Part shown: in pieces, positions 894 to 19,924 of the stretch
Layout: each line of letters opens with the position of its first letter
How positions within the stretch are numbered: position 1 is the stretch's first letter
Made by a program: the position numbers and the translations under genes
NCBI GenBank assembly: GCA_030638335.1
Contig: DAOWET010000001.1
Location: 1-38,324 of the forward strand
Source of the DNA: Nitrospirota bacterium
GTDB lineage: Bacteria > Nitrospirota > Thermodesulfovibrionia > Thermodesulfovibrionales > JdFR-86
Direction of reading: 5' to 3'
Length of the DNA: 38,324 nucleotides
The notes under the pieces: model-generated
What the model was told of the DNA's origin: nothing
Seen by the model: only the letters and a program-made list of their open reading frames with translations
Database searches by the model: none

Positions 894-1958
894 GCGAAGG
901 ATCTGCTAAAGAGCTTACTGCCTCAGGTCAGGGAAAACTGCAATATCTCCGACGCAGGGCACTGGGGCTTCTACTCCACATGCGGACTACTCCTGAGACT
1001 GCGGGAGCTATACCGGTCGGAGCTTGGACTGCACCCGGGCGAATCCATAAAGAACGAGAACGTACTCCCCTGGATAGGAAAGCGCGAGGAACTCTGGGCG
1101 GAGCTTGAGGACGAAGAACTCAAGGACATAACAATAGGCGACAAGACCTTCGGGCCCTTTGACACAGATGGTGTCAATCGCTCCATAGAAGCCGCTGGGT
1201 TCATATACGGGGCCGGGCTTGGACAGTTCATGAAGCCTATTTTCTTTCTTGCCGAACTGGAATCAGCTTCTGAGATGAATGGCTTCCGTGTTCTTGTTGC
1301 AGGGAAGGAACATGCCCGCGACCTCTCCGTAAATCCCGCAATGTCGCGCGGTGCGACCATAATAGCCAGGCGCGACATTACGCAAACGCTCATATACGGC
1401 AGGTTCGAGGAGTTCCTCTCATCACGGAACAGAAAAGGTGCACTTGTCCTGGGCTTTAACCACTACGGCATAAACGGGCCCGATGACATGGAGGCGCTGG
1501 GAAATGTTGTAGACAGCGAGCTCTTGAGTTTCATTCACCACGAGATCGGAGAGATGCATGTCTCAGCCAATACCAACCTCAGGCTTTCAGAACTCATCTC
1601 CTCCCTTGCCCCGCACGGAAGGGCTCCCTCGGCAGTGCGCGATATAAAGGACGTGCTTGCCGACACGGTTGACGGAGGAATGCTCAGGCATATAACTGAC
1701 AATAAAAAATCAGGCTCTCTGGGACTTTACATATCCTCGCTCTCAGGGCTCAGGTACTCGCTGTCCCTGCCCCTGAGAAAGGCCTGGCAAGGCTTTGGCA
1801 CAGACGTGAGATGGGACAAGGTGGAGGAGGCCCGGGCCAACATTTACAGTGCAACTCTGGAGCTTGCCTGCAGGCTCTCCGAGCTTACCGCCAAAAGACA
1901 TGGCTCACCCGAAAACCTCGCTGCCAATGTCGAAGGTCTTCTTCCATGTAATAGTTGA
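891..1958 (+). CDS. Uncharacterised protein, Sfum_1244-like family
   Basis: In-frame ATG at 891 within the 756-1958 ORF; the first 45 codons overlap truA antisense and are unlikely to be translated. Family call from overall sequence only. Confidence 0.7.
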   Translation: MAKDLLKSLLPQVRENCNISDAGHWGFYSTCGLLLRLRELYRSELGLHPGESIKNENVLPWIGKREELWAELEDEELKDITIGDKTFGPFDTDGVNRSIEAAGFIYGAGLGQFMKPIFFLAELESASEMNGFRVLVAGKEHARDLSVNPAMSRGATIIARRDITQTLIYGRFEEFLSSRNRKGALVLGFNHYGINGPDDMEALGNVVDSELLSFIHHEIGEMHVSANTNLRLSELISSLAPHGRAPSAVRDIKDVLADTVDGGMLRHITDNKKSGSLGLYISSLSGLRYSLSLPLRKAWQGFGTDVRWDKVEEARANIYSATLELACRLSELTAKRHGSPENLAANVEGLLPCNS

Positions 1959-2030
1959 CCTGCCACTGCTTGCGCCCGTATACTTAACACCTATGAAACG
2001 GGCGGTTGAAAATGCACTGGGATAAGCCCT
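1955..2030 (+). pseudogene. Decayed duplicate of the argS promoter and first codons
   Basis: Ungapped alignment with 3203-3278, 57/76 identical by hand count. TTGACC, 18-nt spacer, TATACT, then ATGAAACGGGCGGTTGAAAATGCACTGGGATAA (MKRAVENALG*), versus argS TTGACT, 18 nt, TAAACT, ATGAAACGAGCGGTTGAAAAAGCACTC (MKRAVEKAL...). Confidence 0.8.
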
Positions 2031-3202: not shown

Positions 3203-3232
3203 TTGACTTACCCCATCGGTCAGCCGTAAACT
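3203..3232 (+). promoter_or_regulatory. Predicted argS promoter
   Basis: TTGACT (3203-3208), 18-nt spacer, TAAACT (3227-3232); the ATG at 3241 is 8 nt after the -10. Confidence 0.6.
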
Positions 3233-3240
3233 TAATCCCT

Positions 3241-4890
3241 ATGAAACGAGCGGTTGAAAAAGCACTCAGAGACGCCCTCTCGGCCATTGGGGCTGATGCC
3301 TCGGGCCCTATCGAGATACAGATCCCAAAGGACGAGACACACGGAGACCTGGCCTCCCCAATAGCCATGGGCCTGGCCAAGGAGCTCCGGAAGTCGCCAC
3401 GTGCGATCGCGGAGGACATTGCCGCACATATAAGCGAGCGGGCAGCAGACACCTTTACCCGAGTGGAGGTGGCGGGGCCGGGTTTTCTGAACTTCACCTT
3501 TTCCCCTGACTTCCTGCACAAGGGCGCGCTTGGCATACTGAACAAGGGTAAGGAGCATTTCAGCTCTGACGTGGGTGCCGGCACACGCGTACAGGTGGAG
3601 TTCGTAAGCGCCAACCCCACAGGCCCCCTGCACCTTGGGCACGGACGCGGAGCAGCACTTGGGTGCGCGCTCTCAAACCTGCTTGAGGCCGCAGGCTATG
3701 AAGTTGTTCGCGAGTACTATGTCAACGACGCCGGGCGGCAGGTGAGCCTGCTTGGCCAGAGCGTCTTTGCGCGCTACCAGGAGCTTCTTGGCAACTCATA
3801 CCCCATCCCCGAGGACGGGTACAAGGGCGACTACATATCGGATGCGGCCCAGTCCATCCTGGACAAGGAAGGCGATAAACACAAGGGCTCCTCCTTTGAA
3901 GATGCCTCCAGCTTCTTCATAGATACCTCCCTGGGGCTCATGCTGGACGTAATAAAAGAAGACCTCGCGGACTTTGGTGTGTCCTTCGACTCCTGGCAGA
4001 GCGAACGGGCGTTGCACGACGAGGGGGCTGTAAAGCACGCTATAGATTTCCTCGCGGGCAAGGGCCTGATCTACGAAGAAGGCGGCGCAAGATGGTTCCG
4101 CGCCGAGGACTTTGGAGATGACAAGAACCGCGTGGTCATAAAGGCAGACGGCAACCACACATATTTCGCCTCGGACATAGCCTACCACCTCAAAAAGGTG
4201 GAAAGCGGTTTTACGGAAGTGATAGACATATGGGGCGCTGACCACCACGGCTACGTGCCGAGAATGGAGGCGGTCATGGACGCCCTTGGCCCGGGGCGCG
4301 AACACCTGAAGGTCCTGCTTGTGCAGATGGTCTCCCTCCTGAGGGGCGGAGAGCCGGTGCAAATGTCAAAACGCTCCGGGAACTTCGTGCCCCTCAAGGA
4401 AGTAATGGAAGAGGTAGGCGCGGACACCACCAAGTTCATCTTCCTCACACGCCGGCACGACAGCCAGCTCTCCTTTGACCTGGAGGTGGCAAAGGCCGAG
4501 TCCTCCGAGAACCCGGTCTTCTACATCCAGTACGCAAACGCCCGCATCTCAAGCATATTCAGGAAGGCCAGTGACGTGGGCGTATTAACTAATAACCTGG
4601 AAAACGCCGACTTAAGCCCTCTCACCGATAACGACGAGCTGCGGCTCATACGCAAGCTCCTCAGTTACCGCATGACCCTGGAGGGCGCCGCACTTGCGCG
4701 CGAGCCACACCGGCTGACCTTCTACCTGCAGGAGCTTGCTGGACTCTTCCACCCCTTCTACAAGCACCACCGCGTGCTCACAGAGGACGCCGGGCTCACC
4801 ACTGCCCGCCTGGCCCTTTGCGAGGCAGTGCGCGTGGTCATACGCCACGCCCTTGGCGTGCTCGGCATCTCGGCCCCTGACCGCATGTAG
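3241..4890 (+). CDS. argS: Arginyl-tRNA synthetase
   Basis: VEFVSANPTGPLHLGHGRGAALG (HIGH-type motif), YYVNDAGRQ, QMSKRSGNFV (KMSKS-type), C-terminal ALGVLGISAPDRM. Confidence 0.97.
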   Translation: MKRAVEKALRDALSAIGADASGPIEIQIPKDETHGDLASPIAMGLAKELRKSPRAIAEDIAAHISERAADTFTRVEVAGPGFLNFTFSPDFLHKGALGILNKGKEHFSSDVGAGTRVQVEFVSANPTGPLHLGHGRGAALGCALSNLLEAAGYEVVREYYVNDAGRQVSLLGQSVFARYQELLGNSYPIPEDGYKGDYISDAAQSILDKEGDKHKGSSFEDASSFFIDTSLGLMLDVIKEDLADFGVSFDSWQSERALHDEGAVKHAIDFLAGKGLIYEEGGARWFRAEDFGDDKNRVVIKADGNHTYFASDIAYHLKKVESGFTEVIDIWGADHHGYVPRMEAVMDALGPGREHLKVLLVQMVSLLRGGEPVQMSKRSGNFVPLKEVMEEVGADTTKFIFLTRRHDSQLSFDLEVAKAESSENPVFYIQYANARISSIFRKASDVGVLTNNLENADLSPLTDNDELRLIRKLLSYRMTLEGAALAREPHRLTFYLQELAGLFHPFYKHHRVLTEDAGLTTARLALCEAVRVVIRHALGVLGISAPDRM

Positions 4891-5055
4891 CTAATTGCTT
4901 TGAGACGATCTTCGGGGCTGGATACAGCGCATATACTGCGCAATGGAGGACTCGTGGTATAGGGATACAACTTCGTCCTCCATTGCTTGTCTCTGCACTA
5001 TCCCAACCCCGAATCTCTACGTCAGACGCGCGAACTTCCGCTGAACTCAGGAAAA
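4891..5055 (+). ncRNA. Candidate structured RNA or diverged copy of the dispersed element
   Basis: Nested pairings: GACG/CGTC (4904-4907, 5020-5023), TTCGGGG/CCCCGAA (4911-4917, 5007-5013), GGATA/TATCC (4920-4924, 4999-5003), perfect 12-bp GCAATGGAGGAC/GTCCTCCATTGC (4940-4951, 4975-4986). Ends CGCTGAACTCAGGAA, like the other element copies. Confidence 0.45.
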
Positions 5056-5112: not shown

Positions 5113-5140
5113 CCCAGAGAAGTGCCCGTGGCACTCTTTT
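5113..5140 (+). terminator. Rho-independent-like terminator downstream of argS
   Basis: AGTGCC-CGT-GGCACT (5121-5135) followed by CTTTT. Confidence 0.6.
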
Positions 5141-5280
5141 AACTGGTGGCTGTCTGCCCCAACCGCATGCAATTCATCTTTTCCCTTTAAAAGAATCTTC
5201 TAATAAGGAATTAATGTTCAGGTTCTGTAGCGCATGAGATAAAACTGAACACGGTTTCTGATTCGTTCATATACAAGTAA

Positions 5281-5303
5281 GGGGCCACGGGCCCTTTTAT
5301 TTA
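5281..5303 (+). terminator. Rho-independent-like terminator
   Basis: GGGCC-ACG-GGCCC (5282-5294) followed by TTTTATTTAT. Confidence 0.6.
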
Positions 5304-5344
5304 TCTTTGCCGTAGGTTCGAATTATCGCAGACCCCCACGGTTT

Positions 5345-5446
5345 CTGATTTAGTGTAGATGCAAAGAAGAAAGTATGAAGGAGTACTTCTTCGTACTTCG
5401 AATGCTTTATTCTGCCGCAGATGCGCTGAATCAGGAAGCGTGGTTA
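5345..5446 (+). repeat. Dispersed structured element, copy 1
   Basis: Aligns over its length to 19340-19441 (shared GAAGAAAG, ATGAAGG, TCGAATGCTTTATTC, GCCGCAGATGC, TCAGGAAGCGTG). Long imperfect hairpin with outer stem CTGATTTAGTG/CGCTGAATCAG. Confidence 0.8.
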
Positions 5447-6181
5447 CTCTTCTTGGTAGCCGCAGGAGTAACACCCCCACTTCTCATACAACTCATACCA
5501 GGCAAGTTCTCCCCCGCACTGCGGGCACGGCTTCTGATCCGCTGATGCTTCGTCCGGCTCCTGCGTTTCAGCCACATCAAAATCCAGCGAACTCACAAGT
5601 GTCTCCATCTTCTCGTCAGACGGGGCTGAGGGCGCTGATTTGAGATTCTTGTGGTTAAGCTTGTCCTTGAAGGCCACCATTTCATCGTCGAGCATCCTGG
5701 CGGCCTCGTCCATCCTCTGCTCGGCCTTCTTGATCATGCTCTCGCCGTCCGTGGCCTCGGATTTGGCCTGCTCGTACTCGTCATTGAGCTGGCGCACCTC
5801 GTCATTGAGATCCTCTATCCGGGCCTTCAGCTCCTTTGCGCGCCTGGCCGAGTTGCTCATCTCATCCCTCTTTTCGTCAAGGGCTTGGGCGAATAGCTTC
5901 TGCTGTTTCTTGAGGGTTGTGCGCTGCTGCTCGGCAGAGGCCAGGATGTCGTCCTTGTCAAGGTCCGCGGCGTGCTCCATGGCCTTCAGGGCCGCGCTCA
6001 CGCGCTTGCCCTCGTCAGGGATCTCTCCACGGAAGGATTCCATCATCTTGATGAACTTCACGACCGTTCCGCCCGCCTTGGCCATCTCGCGCCTGAGGCG
6101 GTCAGCGATCTGCTCCCTGCTCAGCTCAAGTATGCCCGGCTTTTTGGCAGACAAGCTTTTCCTATCCCCGGATTTCCCCAT
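5444..6181 (-). CDS. Coiled-coil protein with C-terminal zinc ribbon
   Basis: Long charged heptad-like region, then CPQCGGELAWYELYEKWGCYSCGYQEE (two CxxC pairs). Confidence 0.75.
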   Translation of the reverse strand: MGKSGDRKSLSAKKPGILELSREQIADRLRREMAKAGGTVVKFIKMMESFRGEIPDEGKRVSAALKAMEHAADLDKDDILASAEQQRTTLKKQQKLFAQALDEKRDEMSNSARRAKELKARIEDLNDEVRQLNDEYEQAKSEATDGESMIKKAEQRMDEAARMLDDEMVAFKDKLNHKNLKSAPSAPSDEKMETLVSSLDFDVAETQEPDEASADQKPCPQCGGELAWYELYEKWGCYSCGYQEE

Positions 6182-15876: not shown

Positions 15877-18681
15877 ATGGACCCCAAAGACTACAAGGAC
15901 ACCCTTAACCTCCCCTCAACAAGCTTCCCCATGAAGGCAAACCTCCCAAACCGAGAGCCCGAGATGCTGAAGCAATGGGAAGAGGACGGTCTGTATGAAA
16001 AAATGCTCAAGCGCAACGAGGGCAAAGACACATACGTGCTGCACGACGGCCCTCCCTATGCCAACGGGAACATCCATATCGGCCACGCGCTGAACAAGAT
16101 ACTCAAGGACATCATAGTCAAATACAAATCCATGACAGGCCACTATACGCCCTATGTGCCGGGATGGGACTGCCACGGCCTGCCCATCGAGCACCAGGTG
16201 GACAAGAAGCTGGGCAAGAAAAAACGCGAGATAAGCATAGCCGACAAGCGTCTCCTGTGCAGGCAGTACGCGGATAAGTTCGTGGACGTGCAGCGCGAGG
16301 AGTTCAAGCGCCTCGGTGTGCTTGGAGACTGGGACAACCCGTACATAACCATGAGCTTTGATTACGAGGGCGCGATTGTAAAGGAATTCCTCGAGTTCTA
16401 CAAAAAGGGCTACGCATACCTGGGCAAGAAACCCGTGCACTGGTGCCCCTCATGCGTTACCGCGCTTGCGGAGGCAGAGGTGGAGCACGCGGATAAAACT
16501 TCGCCCTCGGTGTTCGTTAAGTTCAAGCTAGAAGCAAAAGAATCTTCTAATAAACTAAATCTGCCTGCTGGCAAAGAAGCTTTTATTGTTATCTGGACCA
16601 CTACTCCATGGACGCTTCCGGCAAACCTTGCGCTAGCCGTAGGAAACAACATTGAATATGCAGCAGTCCTTAACGAAAAGAAGGACGAATTCATAATCGT
16701 GGCAAAAGACCTTGTCTCAAAGCTCCATGAAAAGGGAGTCCTGCCAACGGATAATATATACAGGACTTTCCCTGGCTCAGACCTTGTAGAAATGGAAGCA
16801 TCACATCCTTTCATAGACAGGAAATCAAAGATAATTGACGCATATTTTGTCTCAACCGAAGAGGGTTCGGGAATTGTCCACATAGCTCCCGGCCACGGTC
16901 AGGACGACTACCAGGCCGGCCTCGCCCACGGACTTGAGATACTTGCCCCGGTAAACGATTACGGCAAGTTCGAGGGAAGCGGAGTGGAGGAGATAGAGAA
17001 CCAGTTCGTCTTCAAGGCCAACGATACCATCATAGAAATACTTAAAACAAAAAACGCCCTGCTTTTGAGCGAGGACTACCCGCACTCCTACCCCCACTGC
17101 TGGCGATGCAAGAAGCCGGTCATCTTCCGGGCCACGGAGCAGTGGTTCATCTCCATGGAGCATGAGGGCCTGAGGGAAAAGAGCCTCAAGGAAGTGGAAA
17201 AGACCCGCTGGATACCCGAGTGGGGACAGGACCGCATCCACGGCATGATCGAGGGCCGGCCGGACTGGTGCATATCCCGCCAGCGCTCATGGGGCGTGCC
17301 CATAGCGGTGCTCAAATGCACGTCCTGCAAAGAGCTTGTAAGGGATGACCGGGTAAACGAGATAATTGTCAAGGAGTTCACAGAGCATGGCGCGGACGTA
17401 TGGTATACAAAAGGCGCTGGCGCCTTTATGCCCGAGGGGTTCAAGTGCAAATGCGGCTCAGGGGAGTTCGAGAAAGAGACGGACATACTTGACGTATGGT
17501 TCGATTCGGGCGTGAGCTATGCGGCCACGTTAATACCTGAGCGCGGTTTTCCCAAGCGCGACCCAAGTGAGCCCCCCGCGGACATGTACCTTGAGGGCTC
17601 AGACCAGCACAGGGGATGGTTCCAGAGTTCCTTGCTCGCATCCGTTGGCACACGTGGACACGCCCCATACAAGACCGTGCTCACCCACGGCTATACCGTG
17701 GACGGCAAGGGCAAGAAAATGTCCAAGAGCCAGGGCAACGTGGTGGCCCCACAGGACGTGATCAAGATGACCGGGGCTGACATACTGCGCCTCTGGGTCT
17801 CTGCCGAGGACTATCGCGGGGACGTGCGGATCTCAAACGAGATACTGGCCCGCCTTACAGAGGCATATAGAAAGATAAGAAACACGTCGAAATACCTGCT
17901 CGGGAACCTCCACGATTTTGACGGCGGCGATTATTCATCTGACCTGCTGGAGATAGACCGATGGGCAATGAGCAGTCTACAGCATCTTATAAAGAACGTG
18001 AACTCGGCTTACGAGAACTACACCTTCCACGAGGTCTACCACCGTCTGCACCACTTCTGCATAGTGGACATGAGCAACCTCTACCTCGACATTCTAAAGG
18101 ACAGGCTCTATACCTTCAAGGCTGACTCAAAGGAGCGCCGCGCGGCGCAATGGGTGCTGAACGAGATACTCATGAGCATGACCCGCCTCATGGCCCCGGT
18201 GCTCTCCTTCACCGCTGAGGAGATATGGCAACACATTGAGAACACACCATCGGAAAGCGTGTTACTGACCGACATGCCCGCGCCCCGCGACGAGTTCATT
18301 GACGACGAGCTTGAGGCCCGGTGGGTGAGTATTCAGTCCGTGCGTGATGAGGCGAACAAGGCCCTTGAGCTAAAGCGCGCTGAGAAGTTCATCGGAAACT
18401 CCCTTGAGGCCAAGGTAACGATACATACCAGCGACAGCGGGCTGCGCGAACTCCTTGAAGCCCATGCCGCGGACCTCCCCACCATCTTCATCGTCTCGCA
18501 GGCCGGTGTCACCTCGGAGGGAGAGGGTACTTACAGGAGCGAAGAGATTGCCGGGCTCTCCATCTCCGTGGAAAAGGCCGACGGCGAGAAATGCGCCCGG
18601 TGCTGGAACCGCAGCCTGAGCGTAGGCACAATCACCGGGGCGCCGGATATCTGCGAGCGCTGTAACAAGGCTGTTGCATGA
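15877..18681 (+). CDS. ileS: Isoleucyl-tRNA synthetase
   Basis: DGPPYANGNIHIGHALNKILKD, WDCHGLPIE, VIWTTTPWTLPANLA, GKKMSKSQGN, C-terminal zinc finger CARCWNRS...CERCNKAV. Confidence 0.97.
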   Translation: MDPKDYKDTLNLPSTSFPMKANLPNREPEMLKQWEEDGLYEKMLKRNEGKDTYVLHDGPPYANGNIHIGHALNKILKDIIVKYKSMTGHYTPYVPGWDCHGLPIEHQVDKKLGKKKREISIADKRLLCRQYADKFVDVQREEFKRLGVLGDWDNPYITMSFDYEGAIVKEFLEFYKKGYAYLGKKPVHWCPSCVTALAEAEVEHADKTSPSVFVKFKLEAKESSNKLNLPAGKEAFIVIWTTTPWTLPANLALAVGNNIEYAAVLNEKKDEFIIVAKDLVSKLHEKGVLPTDNIYRTFPGSDLVEMEASHPFIDRKSKIIDAYFVSTEEGSGIVHIAPGHGQDDYQAGLAHGLEILAPVNDYGKFEGSGVEEIENQFVFKANDTIIEILKTKNALLLSEDYPHSYPHCWRCKKPVIFRATEQWFISMEHEGLREKSLKEVEKTRWIPEWGQDRIHGMIEGRPDWCISRQRSWGVPIAVLKCTSCKELVRDDRVNEIIVKEFTEHGADVWYTKGAGAFMPEGFKCKCGSGEFEKETDILDVWFDSGVSYAATLIPERGFPKRDPSEPPADMYLEGSDQHRGWFQSSLLASVGTRGHAPYKTVLTHGYTVDGKGKKMSKSQGNVVAPQDVIKMTGADILRLWVSAEDYRGDVRISNEILARLTEAYRKIRNTSKYLLGNLHDFDGGDYSSDLLEIDRWAMSSLQHLIKNVNSAYENYTFHEVYHRLHHFCIVDMSNLYLDILKDRLYTFKADSKERRAAQWVLNEILMSMTRLMAPVLSFTAEEIWQHIENTPSESVLLTDMPAPRDEFIDDELEARWVSIQSVRDEANKALELKRAEKFIGNSLEAKVTIHTSDSGLRELLEAHAADLPTIFIVSQAGVTSEGEGTYRSEEIAGLSISVEKADGEKCARCWNRSLSVGTITGAPDICERCNKAVA

Positions 18682-19178
18682 GGGGAAAGGCCCTACTCGT
18701 TGCTGCCACGGTTATAGTAGTGACAGCGCTTGACCTTGTGACCAAACACCTGGCCGCAACTCGCATAAGCCATTATGAGCCCATCGAGGTCCTGCCGTTT
18801 TTCAACCTCGTGAACGTGCAGAACAGGGGCGCGGCCTTTGGGATGTTCTCGGCCCTTGGAAGCTGGTTCTTCATCGCCATAAGCCTCGCAGCCATAGCCT
18901 TCATCATATACCTGCTGGTCAAGACGGACGAGAGCCCCTTGGCACTGGCCCTCATAATATCCGGGGCGCTTGGCAACCTTGCCGACCGCCTGTTATTTGG
19001 CTATGTAAGGGATTTTCTAGACATACATGTGGGAGAGCACCACTGGCCCGCCTTCAACCTGGCCGACTCCGCCCTTACCGTTGGGCTTGCGCTTATTATC
19101 ATCCTTCCACTGATCCACGGCTTCAGGGACAAAAAAGAGGCCGGGCCTTCAGAGCCTTCAAAACCGGGCACGCAATAA
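18678..19178 (+). CDS. lspA: Signal peptidase II (lipoprotein signal peptidase)
   Basis: NLVNVQNRGAAFGMF, GALGNLADRLLFGYVRDFLDIHVG, HWPAFNLADSALTVG; overlaps the ileS stop by 4 nt. Confidence 0.95.
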   Translation: MRGKALLVAATVIVVTALDLVTKHLAATRISHYEPIEVLPFFNLVNVQNRGAAFGMFSALGSWFFIAISLAAIAFIIYLLVKTDESPLALALIISGALGNLADRLLFGYVRDFLDIHVGEHHWPAFNLADSALTVGLALIIILPLIHGFRDKKEAGPSEPSKPGTQ

Positions 19179-19324: not shown

Positions 19325-19340
19325 GGTGCCCGTTGGCACC
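19325..19340 (+). terminator. Hairpin directly upstream of element copy 2
   Basis: GGTGCC-CGTT-GGCACC. Confidence 0.4.
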
Positions 19341-19441
19341 TGATTTGCTGTAGCTGGTAGGAAGAAAGCATGAAGGCGTATAAACATACGTCGAATGCTT
19401 TATTCCGCCGCAGATGCAGTAAACTCAGGAAGCGTGAGCTA
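19340..19441 (+). repeat. Dispersed structured element, copy 2
   Basis: Homologous to 5345-5446; outer stem CTGATTTGCTG/CAGTAAA(c)TCAG, apical stem GGCGTAT/ATACGTC. Confidence 0.8.
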
Positions 19442-19924
19442 CTTTTTTGTGCCGACTCTGGTAATCGCAACCTTACCCGTGCGCACAAGCTCCTTGATGC
19501 CCATGGGCTTCATCATATTAACAAAGGCAGTCAACTTGTCCTCGGTGCCCGTGATCTCGATGGTCAGGGTCTTCTCAGAGGAGTCCACCACCTTGCCCCG
19601 GAAGATATTCGCGATCTCGATGGCCTCAAGCTTCCTGTTGGCCTGAGGGGCGATCTTCAGCAGTATCATCTCGCGCTCCACGTGGTCCAACTCGAGCATG
19701 TCCGTGACCTTTATCACGTCGATGAGCTTGTTGAGCTGCTTGGTGATCTGCTCGATGATCTGGTCGTCACCGCTTGTGACAATGGTCATCTGGGAGATCT
19801 TCGAGTCCAGGGTCTCGCCAACCGAGATGCTCTCGATATTGTAGCCTCGACCGCTGAAAAGCCCGGCAACACGGGACAGCACCCCGAATTTGTTCTCAAC
19901 CAGAAGGGATATCGTATGTCTCAT
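19439..19924 (-). CDS. ilvN: Acetolactate synthase small subunit
   Basis: MRHTISLLVENKFGVLSRVAGLFSGRGYNIESISVG, ACT domain. Confidence 0.95.
   Translation of the reverse strand: MRHTISLLVENKFGVLSRVAGLFSGRGYNIESISVGETLDSKISQMTIVTSGDDQIIEQITKQLNKLIDVIKVTDMLELDHVEREMILLKIAPQANRKLEAIEIANIFRGKVVDSSEKTLTIEITGTEDKLTAFVNMMKPMGIKELVRTGKVAITRVGTKK

What the first reader, a model, noticed from the sequence alone, without database searches (positions are those of the whole stretch)
5345..5446. Dispersed ~100-nt structured element abutting the 3' end of a convergent gene (copy 1)
The sequence recurs at 19340-19441 in the same orientation, about 14 kb away. In both places the shared right end (TCAGGAAGCGTG) lies 1-2 nt from the stop codon of a minus-strand gene (zinc-ribbon gene here, ilvN there), and a plus-strand housekeeping gene (argS, lspA) lies on the other side. 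It folds as one long imperfect hairpin: CTGATTTAGTG/CGCTGAATCAG, AGAA/TTCT, AAAGTAT/ATGCTTT, GGAGTAC/GTACTTC. It contains no ORF that explains it and matches no element I can name; attC, REP or a specialised convergent terminator are all possible.
Basis: seen in the sequence. Interest (0 to 1): 0.75.

Follow-up and report, generated by a model that had tools for sequence, protein, structure and literature searches.

The report
Antisense-strand hairpin repeats behind stop codons
This uncultured Nitrospirota genome carries well over a hundred copies of a ~110-base repeat that folds into a finely conserved hairpin, usually right behind a gene's stop codon and only on the strand opposite the gene; it behaves like a mobile REP-type repeat, but its size, structure and placement fit no described family and its job is unknown.

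Summary
Both copies exist; a third, missed copy lies at 4916-5009 (minus) behind argS. The genome holds at least 135 copies by covariance model. Forty divergent copies keep 92% of pairs, with 229 double-change cells against 74 +/- 9 shuffled; helices vary while internal loops (GA/GA, AA/GCN, G/A, GAA/GA) persist. The fold belongs to one strand: 347 G.T against 32 A.C cells, mean MFE -42.9 against -27.3 on the other strand, near shuffled -25.6. That strand is antisense to the abutting gene: the right neighbour is antisense in 81 of 91 copies, its stop codon within 38 nt in 63. Five same-family genomes lack it; the conserved lspA/ilvN junction is 40 nt in one, 260 nt here. Nested copies show turnover. 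No Rfam, phage or plasmid match; no RAYT; no integron integrase. Best reading: a new, large REP/BIME-like mobile hairpin family, its loops and covariation suggesting recognition as folded RNA or ssDNA. Mover and function unknown. attC, intrinsic-terminator and mRNA-stabiliser readings are disfavoured.

The parts
5336..5443 (+). hairpin copy 1 (class A outer stem), ends directly before the stop codon of the minus-strand gene
   Evidence: fold; CM R1 103.5 bits
19337..19430 (+). hairpin copy 2 (class A), ends about 8 nt before the ilvN stop codon
   Evidence: CM R1 94.1 bits; BLAST (80% identical to copy 1)
   Evidence: CM R1 61.6 bits, R3 78.7 bits; fold
5250..5280 (+). remnant: left arm of a further copy, same 31 nt as the left arm of the copy in L016, cut off by the GGGGCCACGGGCCC stem
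   Evidence: read; short BLAST match
5279..5298 (+). terminator-like stem GGGGCCACGGGCCC followed by TTTTATTTAT, a dispersed module seen upstream of many copies
5121..5135 (+). terminator-like stem AGTGCCCGTGGCACT followed by CTTTTAA, between copies 3 and 1
5444..6181 (-). gene abutting copy 1: coiled-coil protein with C-terminal zinc-ribbon-like end, no Pfam family
19439..19924 (-). ilvN, acetolactate synthase small subunit, abutting copy 2
3241..4890 (+). argS, abutting copy 3
18678..19178 (+). lspA, convergent neighbour of ilvN

Best explanation
The finding is one copy of a large family of dispersed, non-coding, non-autonomous repeats (at least 135 copies in this genome) that work like REP/BIME or MITE-type mobile hairpins. 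SHOWN: the unit is a ~110-nt imperfect hairpin on one strand, with conserved helix lengths and conserved G.A-rich internal loops but freely covarying helix sequences; that strand is antisense to the gene whose stop codon it abuts; the mRNA strand of the same DNA folds hardly better than shuffled sequence; copies are nested inside older copies and form decaying arrays; the five same-family genomes searched have no match. INFERRED: the unit spreads in trans through recognition of the folded single strand (ssDNA, or RNA because of the many conserved G.U pairs) by an enzyme not identified; it inserts, or survives, at gene 3' ends in the orientation that leaves the mRNA unfolded next to the stop codon, the sense orientation being harmful because hairpins within ~15 nt of a stop codon stall ribosomes (reported for E. 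coli REP). A further inferred step is that the folded strand is sometimes transcribed as antisense RNA.
For: Copy number: BLAST ~50 each, CM 115 and 135. Covariation: 92.0% cells paired vs 73.5 shuffled, 229 double-change cells vs 74 +/- 9, score 0.581 vs at most 0.143 for slid partners. Strand: G.T 347 vs A.C 32; hairpin strand more stable in 92 of 93 copies, mean -42.9 vs -27.3 (shuffle -25.6). Placement: neighbours (left +, right -) 44, (-,-) 26, (+,+) 5, (-,+) 4; antisense stop within 38 nt in 63 of 81 on the right vs 2 of 50 sense stops on the left; stop codon from 22 nt inside to 31 nt outside the stem end in most. Mobility: none in G001-G005; ileS-lspA-ilvN order kept in G002 with a 40-nt lspA/ilvN gap instead of 260 nt; nested copy in L010; array of five, mostly decayed, in L218. 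Structure kept: unpaired cells 0.62 vs 1.84 expected neutrally for close pairs, 2.41 vs 4.68 for more distant. REP precedents: PMC3733652, PMC12306157 citing Liang 2015.
Against: No mover found: no Y1/RAYT gene (assembly 92% complete), and one group-II-like RT with no hit on its contig. No target-site duplication: flanking direct repeats average 3.75 nt vs 3.64 in mismatched flanks. REPs are 20-40 bp and are usually discussed as folding in mRNA; these do not. Unpaired cells below neutral expectation suggest selection on standing copies, which pure selfish spread does not require. Class C (about 12 copies) lies differently, often just past a sense-strand stop.
Confidence: 0.6

Rival explanations
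1. Antisense-RNA guard: the hairpin is selected as RNA in transcripts that run toward the 3' end of the gene (read-through of a convergent gene, or antisense transcription), where it is bound or cut and keeps antisense transcription out of the gene.
For: Fold only on the antisense strand; position at the gene's 3' end; wobble pairs are about 18% of standard cells, with T.G and G.T favoured at two adjacent positions in unlike stems; unpaired cells fewer than neutral.
Against: No promoter-like site near the window copies; most genes have no copy; no copies in same-family genomes; no expression data.
Confidence: 0.17
2. mRNA 3'-UTR element (REP-like stabiliser or stop-codon-proximal translation regulator) acting in the transcript of the abutting gene.
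For: Median distance to the stop codon 11 nt, 50 of 81 within 15 nt, the range in which E. coli REPs act.
Against: The mRNA strand folds little better than shuffled sequence (-27.3 vs -25.6), and wobble pairs lie on the other strand.
Confidence: 0.07
3. attC-like recombination sites behind genes, folded on the bottom strand and used by a tyrosine recombinase.
For: Geometry (hairpin just past the stop codon, folded strand antisense to the gene, sequence-variable but structure-conserved); a different dispersed hairpin in genus g8 has ATAAC...GTTAG(G)C ends.
Against: No R-box pair in this family; no IntI over cut-off in the genome; neighbours include housekeeping genes; no cassette arrays.
Confidence: 0.06
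4. Intrinsic (bidirectional) terminator of convergent genes.
For: Convergent neighbours are the commonest context (44 of 79).
Against: No T-run after the hairpin; 26 copies between codirectional genes; separate terminator-like stems nearby; very long stem with conserved internal loops.
Confidence: 0.04

Closest known systems
REP / BIME elements (GTAG- and CGTC-tagged palindromes; RAYT-associated)
   Same: Over 100 extragenic copies, hairpins, mosaics and nesting, located downstream of genes between convergent or codirectional ORFs; class B copies carry CGTC at the right foot in 26 of 33.
   Different: ~110 nt instead of 20-40; several conserved internal loops; fold on the strand antisense to the gene and nearly absent in mRNA; no RAYT; CGTC is paired with GACG rather than an unpaired tag; GTAG is inside the stem.
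MITEs such as ERIC, YPAL, NEMIS
   Same: 70-300 bp, imperfect palindrome, non-coding, near genes.
   Different: No target-site duplication detected; no parent insertion sequence found; helices covary instead of a conserved terminal inverted repeat.
Multicopy intergenic nucleotide sequences of Geobacter metallireducens / bemidjiensis / Pelobacter carbinolicus
   Same: Families of palindromic intergenic repeats of unknown function; one family of 24 has the central palindrome GRCGTAGCGCTGCTACGCC, similar in appearance to some apical hairpins here (PMC2700814).
   Different: Homology untested (supplements not readable here); R3 has no match in 1.3 Mb of named Nitrospirota, Geobacter and deltaproteobacterial loci.
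Integron attC sites
   Same: Structure-recognised, antisense-strand hairpin behind a gene.
   Different: No R boxes, no IntI, no cassettes.

Membership tests
REP/BIME | High-copy extragenic palindrome | tested here: met
   at least 135 hits; intergenic placement
REP/BIME | 20-40 bp unit with unpaired GTAG or CGTC tag at one end | tested here: not met
   median hairpin 109 nt; CGTC mainly in class B and paired with GACG
REP/BIME | Associated RAYT (Y1_Tnp) gene | tested here: not met
   no PF01797 match in the genome; assembly 92% complete, so absence is not final
MITE (ERIC-like) | Target-site duplication | tested here: not met
   flanking direct repeats as in mismatched flanks
MITE (ERIC-like) | Terminal inverted repeats shared with a parent insertion sequence | tested here: inconclusive
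   outer stems are inverted repeats but fall into several unlike classes; no parent found
attC | R'' RYYYAAC and R' GTTRRRY boxes | tested here: not met
   read from the aligned ends; only sporadic GTCTAAC on one side
attC | Integron integrase in the genome | tested here: not met
   TIGR02249: only sub-threshold tyrosine-recombinase matches
Intrinsic terminator | Hairpin followed by a T-run on the hairpin strand | tested here: not met
   terminator scan finds other stems only; sequence after the hairpin is the stop codon
Known RNA family (Rfam 15) | Covariance-model match | tested here: not met
   no gathering match in the window; at E up to 5 on nine loci only chance mir-153 matches
Geobacter multicopy intergenic sequences | Sequence/structure homology | tested here: inconclusive
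   no R3 match in named loci; published alignments not readable

The most novel reading that the evidence does not exclude
A genome-wide antisense RNA layer: more than a hundred copies of one structured RNA module, each folding only in transcripts antisense to a gene's 3' end, are maintained by selection and recognised by a dedicated protein or nuclease through their G.A loops, controlling antisense transcription; it may have spread through an RNA intermediate, as a bacterial SINE-like element.
Probability: 0.12. Interest if true: 0.85.

Novelty: new variant of a known kind. Interest (0 to 1): 0.52.

Why it matters
REP-type repeats are usually discussed as hairpins in the host mRNA. Here the structure is kept only on the antisense strand and set against the stop codon, so folding of the mRNA cannot be the point. 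That separates two often-mixed questions for such repeats: what moves them and what, if anything, they do. The covariance model makes the family searchable, and the conserved G.A loops predict a specific binding partner.

Tried and rejected
Rfam on window and loci: nothing meaningful. Y1 transposase, integron integrase, reverse transcriptase as mover: absent, sub-threshold, or one unlinked gene. Model R2 was built with my off-by-one structure and was discarded; R3 is the corrected one. A fixed-geometry descriptor found 8 copies in 211 kb against 14 or more with the models. A GATGCAAG...GCAGATG pattern in 1.3 Mb of named relatives: none, R3 likewise. Phages, plasmids and IMG/VR: none. Same stop-codon rule in other genomes carrying related hairpins: not seen, orientations mixed.

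Full report
OBSERVATION. Covariance model R1 adds a third copy at 4916-5009 on the minus strand, 25 nt past the argS stop. So the argS / zinc-ribbon convergent region carries one hairpin per gene, each on the strand antisense to its gene. A 31-nt left-arm remnant at about 5250-5280 shows that a further copy once lay there.

SCALE. The window lies in a 2.78-Mb, 300-contig assembly; the nearest named IleS relatives are Nitrospirota. BLAST with each copy finds about 50 places; R1 finds 115, R3 135 at E up to 0.1 although only 150 of 760 candidates were scored. In 211 kb of long stretches R3 finds 14 convincing copies, about 180 if extrapolated to the genome; most of those stretches were chosen because they held hits, so this extrapolation may be too high.

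STRUCTURE. From outside in: a variable outer stem, GA/GA loop, 3 bp, AA/GCN loop, 4 bp, G/A mismatch, 7 bp, GAA/GA loop, apical stem. On 40 divergent copies 92.0% of cells pair (shuffled 73.5), 22 of 28 pairs show double changes, 229 double-change cells (shuffled 74 +/- 9), covariation score 0.581 against at most 0.143 when partners are slid. Loops are the conserved part: GA on the inner right 88 of 93, GA on the outer right 87, GAA 75, GA on the outer left 74. Some copies carry insert modules at the apex (GTCGAAGACTCGATCCGAGG, or a ~75-nt CCAGCCACGGGCTGG...GGGGTCCGTGACCCC module). Outer stems fall into classes A, B, C and others, with class-specific leaders.

STRAND. Pairs that are not Watson-Crick are G.T 347 times and A.C 32 times, so the fold is kept on one strand only. 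Mean MFE is -42.9 there, -27.3 on the other strand, -25.6 shuffled; 92 of 93 copies favour the first strand. That strand is antisense to the abutting gene.

PLACEMENT. With genes called by a codon model trained on the window, the right-hand neighbour is antisense in 81 of 91 copies; neighbour pairs are (+,-) 44, (-,-) 26, (+,+) 5, (-,+) 4. The antisense stop codon is within 38 nt in 63 of 81 on the right; a sense stop is that near on the left in 2 of 50. It lies at or within the stem end in about a third of copies. Copies share descent, so P values are nominal. Class C (about 12 copies) is an exception, often close behind a sense-strand stop.

ORIGIN. R1 finds none in the five same-family genomes. 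In one, G002, the order ileS-lspA-ilvN is the same but lspA and ilvN are 40 nt apart, against 260 nt here. In L010 a copy sits inside the outer stem of an older one; L218 has five in a row, four of them poorly folded, and the one at the stop codon well folded. Structurally similar but sequence-diverged hairpins occur in several other Nitrospirota genomes and in genus g8, without the stop-codon rule; homology with these is plausible, not shown. Compared with the nearest copy, unpaired cells are fewer than neutral substitution predicts (0.62 vs 1.84; 2.41 vs 4.68), so structure is being kept, through selection on standing copies or because only folded copies spread. The copies in that test were parsed with some preference for pairing, which favours this result.

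MECHANISM. I favour a non-autonomous mobile hairpin, spread in trans through its folded strand and tolerated at gene ends because the mRNA side stays open. The mover is unknown: no Y1/RAYT, no IntI over cut-off, one RT with a group II maturase domain, single copy, with no hairpin hit on its contig. No target-site duplication. The high share of conserved wobble pairs leaves open that RNA, not ssDNA, is the folded species, and hence an antisense-RNA role.

LITERATURE. GTAG/CGTC REPs lie mostly downstream of genes between convergent and codirectional ORFs, and CGTC REPs lack a known transposase (PMC3733652). REPs within 15 nt of a stop codon can stall ribosomes (PMC12306157 citing Liang et al. 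2015). Geobacter and Pelobacter genome papers report unexplained palindromic multicopy intergenic families (PMC2700814, PMC2996986, PMC3543383). Searches of the library found no description of this family, which does not prove there is none.

LIMITS. One metagenome-assembled genome; no expression data; genes called by a simple model; copies found by structure-aware search (A3 itself is a MAFFT alignment). The statement that the sense orientation is selected against is inference.

Noticed in passing
window 5279-5298, 5121-5135 and many loci: Short stems with an ACG-type loop (GGGGCCACGGGCCC, GTGCCCGTGGCAC, GGGGTCCGTGACCCC), often followed by TTTTA, recur upstream of or inside the hairpins; they look like a second dispersed module, perhaps terminators.
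   Followed up: partly
L231, L239, L240, L043: A ~75-nt module CCAGCCACGGGCTGG...AAATTAAAGGGGGTCCGTGACCCC sits at the apex of several hairpin copies at the same place.
   Followed up: no
L152, L160, L161, L204, L209, L210, L211: Class C hairpins share a conserved ~60-nt right extension (GGTGAAGGGCGGG...AAAGGTACAAAACGCGACTTTGCAATATTTGCAAAATTATGC) and a different position relative to genes.
   Followed up: partly
L168-L189 (genomes G007, G019, G030): A dispersed ~125-nt hairpin with TACCAAGTTGCAGTC ends and an attC-like ATAAC...GTTAG(G)C inner part, in intergenic regions in both orientations.
   Followed up: partly
L264, L265, L277: In family f28 genomes, hairpins with the AGATGCAAGG...GACGCCGCAGATG motif lie just before what read like tRNA genes.
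   Followed up: no
L313:1081-2340 (-), G000:C233: A 419-aa reverse transcriptase with a group II maturase domain, best PADLOC matches RT and RT_UG17; the only RVT_1 match in the genome.
   Followed up: partly
window 1955-2030 and 3203-3278: A 76-nt direct repeat (75% identical) covering the argS start region and a copy of it just past the end of an upstream ORF, as if the argS start had been partly duplicated.
   Followed up: no
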